Virus record (IMG/VR): IMGVR_UViG_3300017743_002173
Coordinates: 1-21,673 of that record
Length of the DNA: 21,673 nt
Direction: 5' to 3' (one strand)
Source: a virus
A model generated the notes under the pieces. That model did not search any database, was not told the DNA's origin, and was given only the letters and a program-made list of their open reading frames with translations. The stretch's first letter is position 1, and each line of letters opens with the position of its first letter. Of this stretch, positions 15,148 to 18,600 are shown one piece after another. A program made the translations under genes and the position numbers.

Positions 15148-15168
15148 AGTTTATATATAATTATACTA

Positions 15169-15385
15169 GGCTGTTCGTAAGACCTGGTGTAGCCGAAGAC
15201 TAAATGATCTCGGTGTCGCTGGAGTTGGTGGATCTCCGTAAAAAATACCACCACTAGTTTTGTCGGAGTTTGGCGAGAGTTTAAAACCGACTATGTTTTT
15301 GGCACTTGCGCCTGGTTTCAGTAAAAAACTAAAGCTGCGGATCTCTTTGGTAGTTTAAGACCCTAAACCGAAACTACCATTTTTT
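15169..15385 (+). ncRNA. Structured RNA of unknown family: leader attenuator or independent sRNA
   Basis: This 217-base non-coding stretch is clearly richer in G than its surroundings and dense in complementary pairs: GGCT/AGCC (15169-15194), TGGTGG/CCACCA (15226-15253), GTCGG/CCGAC (15262-15291) and GGC/GCC (15301-15312). It ends in a terminator hairpin (15348-15385). GATCTC occurs three times (15206, 15231, 15340), and GGA four times, partly in unpaired segments. AAACTA (15326-15331) is complementary to TAGTTT in the 5' arm of the terminator, so an antiterminator is possible. The membrane-protein ATG is 4 bases after the T-run, which favours an attenuating leader; an sRNA processed from or started after rpsU is the alternative. 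A possible -10 (TATACT, 15162-15167) has no matching -35. I do not recognise the family. Confidence 0.6.
15348..15385 (+). terminator. Intrinsic terminator directly before the membrane-protein start
   Basis: A 9-bp perfect stem, TGGTAGTTT (15348-15356) / AAACTACCA (15371-15379), a 14-base loop and six Ts (15380-15385). The next ORF starts at 15389. The 5' arm can instead pair with AAACTA at 15326-15331 plus AAG/CTT (15332-15334/15345-15347), a mutually exclusive fold. Confidence 0.88.
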
Positions 15386-15388
15386 ATT

Positions 15389-17784: not shown

Positions 17785-17814
17785 TGGCCGAAGGAGCATT
17801 GACTTTTTCGGCCA
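17785..17814 (+). repeat. Promoter hairpin, copy 2 (upstream of gp45)
   Basis: TGGCCGAA (17785-17792) / TTCGGCCA (17807-17814), a perfect 8-bp stem. Its 14-base loop GGAGCATTGACTTT again contains the -35 TTGACT. Compare copy 1 at 16168-16202. Confidence 0.8.
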
Positions 17815-17827
17815 TTTATGTTATATT
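17799..17827 (+). promoter_or_regulatory. Promoter of the clamp/clamp-loader block
   Basis: TTGACT (17799-17804), a 17-base spacer, TATATT (17822-17827) with an upstream TG (extended -10). The predicted start, about 17834, falls 2 bases before the closing stem of the leader RNA at 17836. Confidence 0.75.
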
Positions 17828-17835
17828 AAAACAAT

Positions 17836-17909
17836 GAGCGGATATCGTATAAAAGTATTATGGCAGGTTACCAACTTGCAGACCTTGGGGCAGTACCAAG
17901 TATCCGCTC
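17836..17909 (+). ncRNA. Cloverleaf-shaped leader RNA of the gp45 mRNA (possible riboswitch)
   Basis: A closing stem of 9 perfect pairs (GAGCGGATA, 17836-17844 / TATCCGCTC, 17901-17909) encloses three arms. They are CGTA/TATG with a 9-base loop (17846-17862), GCAGG/CTTGC with a 7-base loop TTACCAA (17863-17879), and CTTGG/CCAAG with a 7-base loop GGCAGTA (17884-17900). The outline matches a tRNA, but the last arm lacks the TTCRA loop, the first arm lacks GG, and the closing stem is 2 pairs too long. The loop bases CCAA (17871-17874) can also pair with TTGG (17885-17888), competing with the third arm, and CC/GG contacts between the two 7-base loops are possible. The SD (GAGGAG, 17921) and ATG follow 11 and 25 bases later. 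Confidence 0.6.
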
Positions 17910-17934
17910 CAATTAATAATGAGGAGAATATATA

Positions 17935-18600
17935 ATGAATCTTTCAAGTGATACTTTGTCTGTACTTAAAAACTTTTCTGATATTAATCAAAATTTGTTG
18001 ATTAAACCAGGTAGTAAAGTACAAACAATCTCTACAATGAAAAATATTTTAGCAGAAGCTGAAATACCAGAAAAATTTAATAGTGAGTTTGCTATCTATG
18101 ACTTATCAGAGTTTTTAAGATCAGTAGAACTATTTGATAGTCCTGTTTTAAACTTTAATGGTGGTTCTAACGTAACCATTGCTGAAGAAAAAACAAAACA
18201 GAATATTAAATATTTCTTTGCTGATAAATCTGTAGTTGTAGCCCCTACAAAATCTATTAATATGCCAGACAAAACAATTTCTTTTACACTTACAAAAGAT
18301 AATTTTGGCAAACTTATGAAAGCCACAACGACATTAGGTTTACCTGACATTGCTGTTAGAGGTGATGGTAGTAAAATCAAAATGGTTGCAACAGATAAGA
18401 AAAACAATTCATCAAACGAGTATGCTATTGAAGTAGGCGAAACTGATAAAAAGTTTAGTGCTTATTTTAAAACAGAAAACTTTAAAATGGTTGGTGATGA
18501 TTATGATGTTGCAATATCAGTACAAAAGATATCACATTTTGTTAACAGGAATAAAGCTATTCAATATTGGATTGCATTAGAACCTGATAGTGAATTTTAA
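17935..18600 (+). CDS. 45: gp45-like DNA polymerase sliding clamp
   Basis: A 221-residue homologue of T4 gp45 (228 residues), the trimeric ring that tethers the DNA polymerase and, with gp55, activates late transcription. Recognisable stretches are the N-terminal LSSDTLSVLKNFSDINQNLLIKPG (2-25), EIPEKFNSEFAIYDLSEFLRSVELF and the C-terminal IQYWIALEPDSEF. The SD is GAGGAG. The leader contains the cloverleaf RNA. The gene is followed after 26 bases by gp44, as in T4. Confidence 0.95.
   Translation: MNLSSDTLSVLKNFSDINQNLLIKPGSKVQTISTMKNILAEAEIPEKFNSEFAIYDLSEFLRSVELFDSPVLNFNGGSNVTIAEEKTKQNIKYFFADKSVVVAPTKSINMPDKTISFTLTKDNFGKLMKATTTLGLPDIAVRGDGSKIKMVATDKKNNSSNEYAIEVGETDKKFSAYFKTENFKMVGDDYDVAISVQKISHFVNRNKAIQYWIALEPDSEF

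What the first reader, a model, noticed from the sequence alone, without database searches (positions are those of the whole stretch)
17828..17937. tRNA-shaped leader RNA on the sliding-clamp mRNA
The predicted transcript of gene 45 starts about 2 bases before a 74-base element with a perfect 9-bp closing stem and three arms (4/9, 5/7 and 5/7 stem/loop sizes), the outline of a tRNA. Tests against tRNA rules fail in the T- and D-loops. Two 7-base loops carry CC and GG for a possible kissing contact, and CCAA in one loop can displace a strand of the neighbouring arm. A switching leader on the gene that controls both replication and late transcription would be a natural control point, possibly with RegA, or with a tRNA-processing or tRNA-binding protein.
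Basis: partly seen in the sequence, partly recalled or inferred. Interest (0 to 1): 0.82.

Follow-up and report, generated by a model that had tools for sequence, protein, structure and literature searches.

The report
Rewired glycine tRNA heading phage mRNAs
The "tRNA-shaped leader" in front of this marine phage's sliding-clamp gene is a phage glycine tRNA gene whose normally universal elbow contact has been exchanged for a different matched pair; it belongs to a large, previously unannotated family that standard tRNA finders partly miss and that phages place right in front of their replication and translation genes.

Summary
The element is real: window 17838-17911 is a full cloverleaf with a 7-bp acceptor, D, anticodon and T arms, and an encoded 3' CCA. 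Its promoter is placed so that transcription would start 3-4 nt before it. It is not a private leader of gene 45. Over 90 distinct relatives occur in marine and freshwater phages, with strong covariation in all four stems (99.2% of cells paired). All have Gly features: G1-C72, C2-G71, U73, CCA and anticodon NCC, with N34 = A, U, G or C. With relaxed filters, Rfam tRNA scores 37.5 bits (gathering 29); ARAGORN and fast Rfam miss it. The elbow is exchanged rather than decayed: G18·U55 becomes A18·G55 while G19-C56 stays. Two same-site orthologues differ at six positions, exactly the pairs 7-66, 18-55 and 51-63. Copies precede gp45, gp62, rpsU or a redoxin gene, or lie in tRNA arrays. No conserved alternative fold of the ribosome-binding site was found. 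Best reading: an elbow-variant tRNA-Gly(ACC) gene heading the gp45 mRNA. A cis-regulatory or non-proteinogenic role is not excluded. Charging, processing and decoding are untested.

The parts
17785..17814 (+). terminator-like hairpin TGGCCGAA..TTCGGCCA that encloses the -35 box
   Evidence: in 29 of 94 leaders with TTGAC a perfect inverted repeat of 7 bp or more, with changing arms, surrounds it
17799..17827 (+). sigma70-type promoter TTGACT-17-TATATT; predicted start about 17834, 3-4 nt before tRNA G1
   Evidence: 74 of 78 gp45 and redoxin-like leaders have such a promoter, the -10 box ending 7-9 nt before G1 in 59 of the 74
17838..17911 (+). tRNA-Gly-like gene with variant elbow, 74 nt including encoded CCA
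   Evidence: Rfam tRNA 37.5 bits; family alignment A1 and covariation; model R1
17838..17844 (+). acceptor stem 5' strand GCGGATA, pairs with 17901-17907
   Evidence: 100% of cells paired; pairs 1-3 invariant G-C, C-G, G-C; pairs 5-7 covary
17847..17861 (+). D arm; D-loop AAAAGTA with A18 = 17854 (normally G) and G19 = 17855
17863..17879 (+). anticodon arm; loop TTACCAA, anticodon ACC (Gly, GGU) at 17870-17872
   Evidence: U33, C35, C36 and A37 invariant in 54 sequences
17884..17900 (+). T arm; loop GGCAGTA at 17889-17895 with G55 = 17890 (normally U) and C56 = 17891
17908..17911 (+). discriminator U73 and encoded CCA
   Evidence: present in 38 of 39 distinct copies in loci not selected for it
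17921..17926 (+). Shine-Dalgarno GAGGAG of gene 45
   Evidence: sequence
17935..18600 (+). gene 45, sliding clamp
   Evidence: PF09116, E = 7e-13

Best explanation
It is a phage tRNA-Gly gene (anticodon ACC, reading GGU) that forms the 5' end of the gene 45 transcript. Shown: a cloverleaf under strong covariation; retained Gly identity positions and CCA; a coupled exchange of the elbow contact (G18·U55 to A18·G55) with G19-C56 kept; a promoter whose predicted start is at the tRNA 5' end; and the same gene type found in front of other genes or inside tRNA arrays. Inferred: the tRNA is cut out of the gp45 transcript by RNase P and 3' enzymes, charged by host GlyRS, and used to read phage Gly codons (GGU is 73% of Gly codons in the window). 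The gp45 mRNA left behind has a 23-nt leader with its own Shine-Dalgarno. The exchanged elbow cannot receive Gm18, T54 or pseudouridine 55, so the tRNA may fold without those host modifications; this last point is the most speculative.
For: Rfam tRNA 37.5 bits; ARAGORN calls the HTVC008M copy tRNA-Gly(acc) and the second class tRNA-Gly(gcc). Covariation: 269 double-sided changes against 64 in shuffles, score 0.743 against 0.197. U33, C35, C36, A37 and U73-CCA are conserved. Elbow co-change: Gly elements 97 A18-G55, 7 G18-U55 and 2 others (probable misalignments); other tRNA-like genes 11 and 125; G19-C56 in 104 of 106. Same-site orthologues L201 and L006 differ only at pairs 7-66, 18-55 and 51-63. 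In tRNA-rich phages the element lies in tRNA arrays. The same leader sites can hold canonical tRNAs: tRNA-Thr before gp62, tRNA-Arg before rpsU in Melnitz (PMC9004378). Anticodons look complementary: ACC copies are the only Gly element found in all 58 loci, while UCC copies have a GCC or ACC partner in 36 of 53.
Against: No transcript, processing or charging data exist. G18, U54, U55 and A58 are missing, so ribosome or EF-Tu use is unproven. The anticodon complementarity is not independent of descent (only 3 well-supported independent pairs, sign test not significant). ACC anticodons are unusual: none among the roughly 30 alphaproteobacterial tRNA-Gly genes seen. Seventeen loci have only UCC although GGU dominates. 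Close placement, 4-30 nt before start codons, could also serve a cis role.
Confidence: 0.62

Rival explanations
1. Cis-acting tRNA-Gly mimic: the element stays in the mRNA and is bound by GlyRS (as in the thrS operator), EF-Tu or RNase P, so that clamp translation follows Gly charging or tRNA maturation.
For: Placed 4-30 nt upstream of start codons of gp45, gp62, rpsU and a redoxin gene. Position 34 varies while the GlyRS identity positions are kept. The CUCC at the 3' end can pair with GGAG of the ribosome-binding site.
Against: Not tied to one gene; found in tRNA arrays; U33 and G19-C56 are kept; ribosome-site pairing equals control chimeras; canonical tRNAs occupy the same leader sites.
Confidence: 0.2
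2. Non-proteinogenic Gly-tRNA: charged by GlyRS but kept off the ribosome by its elbow, acting as a glycine donor or a GlyRS sink, like the cell-wall tRNA-Gly of staphylococci.
For: Changed D- and T-loops with intact Gly identity. The second class has T-loop UGCGAAU, which resembles the staphylococcal cell-wall tRNAs (from memory).
Against: G19-C56, the surface used by the ribosome (PMC4810234), is kept in 104 of 106; U33 and A37 are kept; anticodons look complementary; no Gly-tRNA-using enzyme was identified.
Confidence: 0.1
3. Metabolite- or protein-sensing switch in the gene 45 leader.
For: Structured 5' end just upstream of the ribosome-binding site.
Against: The element moves between genes; no conserved alternative fold; the CC/GG contact is not conserved; it scores as tRNA.
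Confidence: 0.03
4. Decaying tRNA pseudogene.
For: Non-canonical T-loop; missed by ARAGORN.
Against: Near-perfect pairing with compensatory change in all stems; invariant CCA and identity positions; coupled elbow change.
Confidence: 0.02

Closest known systems
Bacterial elongator tRNA-Gly (Rfam RF00005; host-like tRNA-Gly UCC and GCC)
   Same: Cloverleaf, acceptor GCG..CGC, U73-CCA, U8, A14, G19-C56, U33, anticodon NCC, A37
   Different: A18-G55 instead of G18-U55; 54-58 is G-G or A-U instead of U-A; anticodon often ACC; lies at the 5' end of phage mRNAs
Non-proteinogenic (cell-wall) tRNA-Gly of Staphylococcus (from memory)
   Same: Gly identity kept while G18 and U55 are lost; T-loop UGC in the second phage class
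   Different: Staphylococcal forms also lose G19; the phage forms keep G19-C56 and carry several anticodons
tRNA genes co-transcribed ahead of an mRNA, e.g. E. coli thrU-tyrU-glyT-thrT-tufB (from memory) and Melnitz tRNA-Arg before rpsU (PMC9004378)
   Same: tRNA placed directly upstream of a protein gene in one transcript
   Different: Single elbow-variant tRNA-Gly; predicted transcript starts at the tRNA itself; the downstream gene changes between phages
tRNA-like operators such as the thrS leader bound by ThrRS (from memory)
   Same: tRNA-like shape with synthetase identity elements near a ribosome-binding site
   Different: Controlled gene is not a synthetase; full cloverleaf with CCA; no fixed target gene

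Membership tests
canonical bacterial tRNA-Gly | four-arm cloverleaf with 7/5/7 geometry, conserved by covariation | tested here: met
canonical bacterial tRNA-Gly | Gly identity: G1-C72, C2-G71, U73, C35, C36 | tested here: met
   invariant in 54 non-redundant sequences
canonical bacterial tRNA-Gly | 3' CCA after the discriminator | tested here: met
   38 of 39 distinct copies in loci not selected for it
canonical bacterial tRNA-Gly | Rfam RF00005 score above gathering | tested here: met
   37.5 bits against 29
canonical bacterial tRNA-Gly | G19-C56 tertiary pair | tested here: met
   104 of 106 Gly elements
canonical bacterial tRNA-Gly | G18-U55 and U54-A58 contacts in the elbow | tested here: not met
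   A18-G55 in 97 of 106; 54-58 is G-G 57, A-U 34, U-A 14
canonical bacterial tRNA-Gly | processed, aminoacylated and used by the ribosome | not testable with these tools
   needs infection RNA and biochemistry
riboswitch or switching leader | conserved mutually exclusive structure involving the ribosome-binding site or a terminator | tested here: not met
   SD pairing 0.560 natural against 0.562 control
riboswitch or switching leader | association with one gene or pathway | tested here: not met
   gp45, gp62, rpsU, redoxin, other genes and tRNA arrays
aaRS-binding operator (thrS-like) | synthetase identity elements present in the leader | tested here: met
aaRS-binding operator (thrS-like) | synthetase binding represses translation | not testable with these tools
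   needs binding and toeprint assays
staphylococcal non-proteinogenic tRNA-Gly | both D-loop G18 and G19 lost | tested here: not met
   G19 kept

The most novel reading that the evidence does not exclude
A widespread family of phage Gly-tRNA mimics with an exchanged elbow acts in cis: GlyRS or tRNA-processing enzymes read the leader, so that clamp, clamp-loader, S21 and redoxin synthesis follow glycine charging or tRNA maturation in glycine-dependent SAR11 hosts.
Probability: 0.15. Interest if true: 0.88.

Novelty: new variant of a known kind. Interest (0 to 1): 0.62.

Why it matters
The 18-55 contact of the tRNA elbow is treated as essentially universal; PMC4810234 calls pseudouridine 55 universally conserved. 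Here is a large natural set in which it has been exchanged for another matched combination, in apparently functional tRNAs, so its role and that of the T54, pseudouridine 55 and Gm18 modifications become testable. It also corrects annotation: HTVC008M is listed with 0 tRNAs in PMC7029224, and Mosig carries a hypothetical protein over the element. It shows a recurrent design in which a predicted mRNA 5' end is itself a tRNA.

Tried and rejected
Kissing CC/GG contact: GG is not conserved. Alternative fold hiding the ribosome-binding site: equal to control chimeras; the long-range alternative in the window alone depends on where the fold is cut. 9-bp stem as defining feature: two pairs are private to few members. 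Pseudogene: refuted by covariation. The genome contigs pattern scan returned unrelated bacteria, apparently chance matches, and the class-wide D-arm pattern search found only 3 unrelated matches. Anticodon complementarity was tested on a gp45 tree: the data do not show independence. Codon-usage difference between ACC and UCC phages is small (GGU 0.71 against 0.67-0.71) and not decisive. Literature searches gave no description of this element or of an A18/G55 elbow; coverage is open-licence papers only.

Full report
WHAT IS THERE. Window 17838-17911 folds as a cloverleaf (-26.7 kcal/mol for 17835-17910, z -3.8). A TTGACT-17-TATATT promoter ends at 17827, so the transcript should start about 3-4 nt before the acceptor. 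Gene 45 begins at 17935, 23 nt after the CCA, with GAGGAG at 17921-17926. ARAGORN and the fast Rfam scan find no tRNA. The same Rfam model with relaxed filters gives 37.5 bits (gathering 29).

A FAMILY. Relatives were found upstream of gp45 in IMG/VR contigs, in Pelagibacter phages Mosig (gp45) and HTVC008M (in front of rpsU, not gp45), and by pattern scans. A non-redundant set of 54 (alignment A1) shows covariation in all four stems: 99.2% of cells pair against 73% shuffled and at most 45% when slid; 269 double-sided changes against 64. Two scan patterns required CCGCTCCA, so 3'-end conservation was recounted in loci not selected for it: 38 of 39 distinct copies carry U73-CCA.

IDENTITY. G1-C72, C2-G71, G3-C70, U33, C35, C36, A37, G53-C61, C56, U73 and CCA are invariant; U8, G10 and A14 nearly so. 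Position 34 is U, A, G or C. These are the positions known for bacterial Gly identity (established knowledge).

ELBOW. Across all tRNA-like genes in these phage loci, position 18 and position 55 switch together: Gly elements 97 A-G, 7 G-U and 2 others; other tRNA-like genes 125 G-U and 11 A-G. G19-C56 is kept in 104 of 106 Gly elements. The 2 others (L309, L381) have a longer D-loop and are probably misaligned. At the gp44-gp62 junction, L201 (canonical) and L006 (variant) have the same order Gly-Thr-protein gene and differ at six positions, namely 7, 66, 18, 55, 51 and 63: three exchanged pairs and nothing else. This argues for an exchanged elbow, not a lost one.

CONTEXT. Copies lie mostly 4-30 nt before start codons of gp45, gp62, rpsU and a redoxin-like gene (gp45, gp62, redoxin and S21 domains confirmed). 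Of the 78 gp45 and redoxin-like leaders, 74 have a promoter, with the -10 box 7-9 nt before G1 in 59 of them. gp62 and rpsU copies are intergenic, usually without a promoter. In tRNA-rich phages the same element sits among ordinary tRNA genes. Ordinary tRNAs also occupy the leader sites: tRNA-Thr before gp62, tRNA-Arg before rpsU in Melnitz. On a gp45 tree, location needs at least 9 changes and anticodon set at least 15.

FUNCTION. ACC copies are the only Gly element found in 58 loci; UCC copies have a GCC (or ACC) partner in 36 of 53. This looks like decoding logic, but the tree leaves too few independent cases to prove it. GGU is 73% of Gly codons in the window. A cis switch is not supported: ribosome-site pairing equals control chimeras. 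Inference: the tRNA is excised and used. The reason for the elbow exchange is open; independence from T54, pseudouridine 55 and Gm18 modification is a guess.

VERDICT. An elbow-variant tRNA-Gly family, new as a variant, at the 5' end of the gp45 transcript. Published tables list HTVC008M with 0 tRNAs (PMC7029224), and Mosig has a hypothetical protein annotated over the element.

Noticed in passing
window 17785-17827: The -35 box of the tRNA-gp45 promoter lies inside a terminator-like hairpin; 29 of 94 related leaders with TTGAC show a perfect inverted repeat of 7 bp or more around it with different arms, a terminator/promoter overlap.
   Followed up: partly
window 15155-15388: About 230 nt without a called gene, with several hairpins, between the S21 gene and the next ORF; no Rfam match even at E <= 5.
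   Followed up: partly
L066, L130, L190, L197, L281 upstream of gp62: Canonical tRNA-Thr(UGU) ends 7-10 nt before the gp62 ATG with no visible Shine-Dalgarno, so initiation there is puzzling.
   Followed up: no
L356, L369, L347 tRNA arrays: Phage tRNAs of several amino acids with A18-G55, or with A54-U58 in place of U54-A58, suggesting wider elbow rewiring in phage tRNAs.
   Followed up: partly
L202:773-846: A Thr-type (anticodon GGT) element with the same D arm as the Gly family and T-loop AGCATTA.
   Followed up: no
L082:3998-4093: Mosig record annotates hypothetical protein QOI68975.1 across the tRNA-Gly element.
   Followed up: yes
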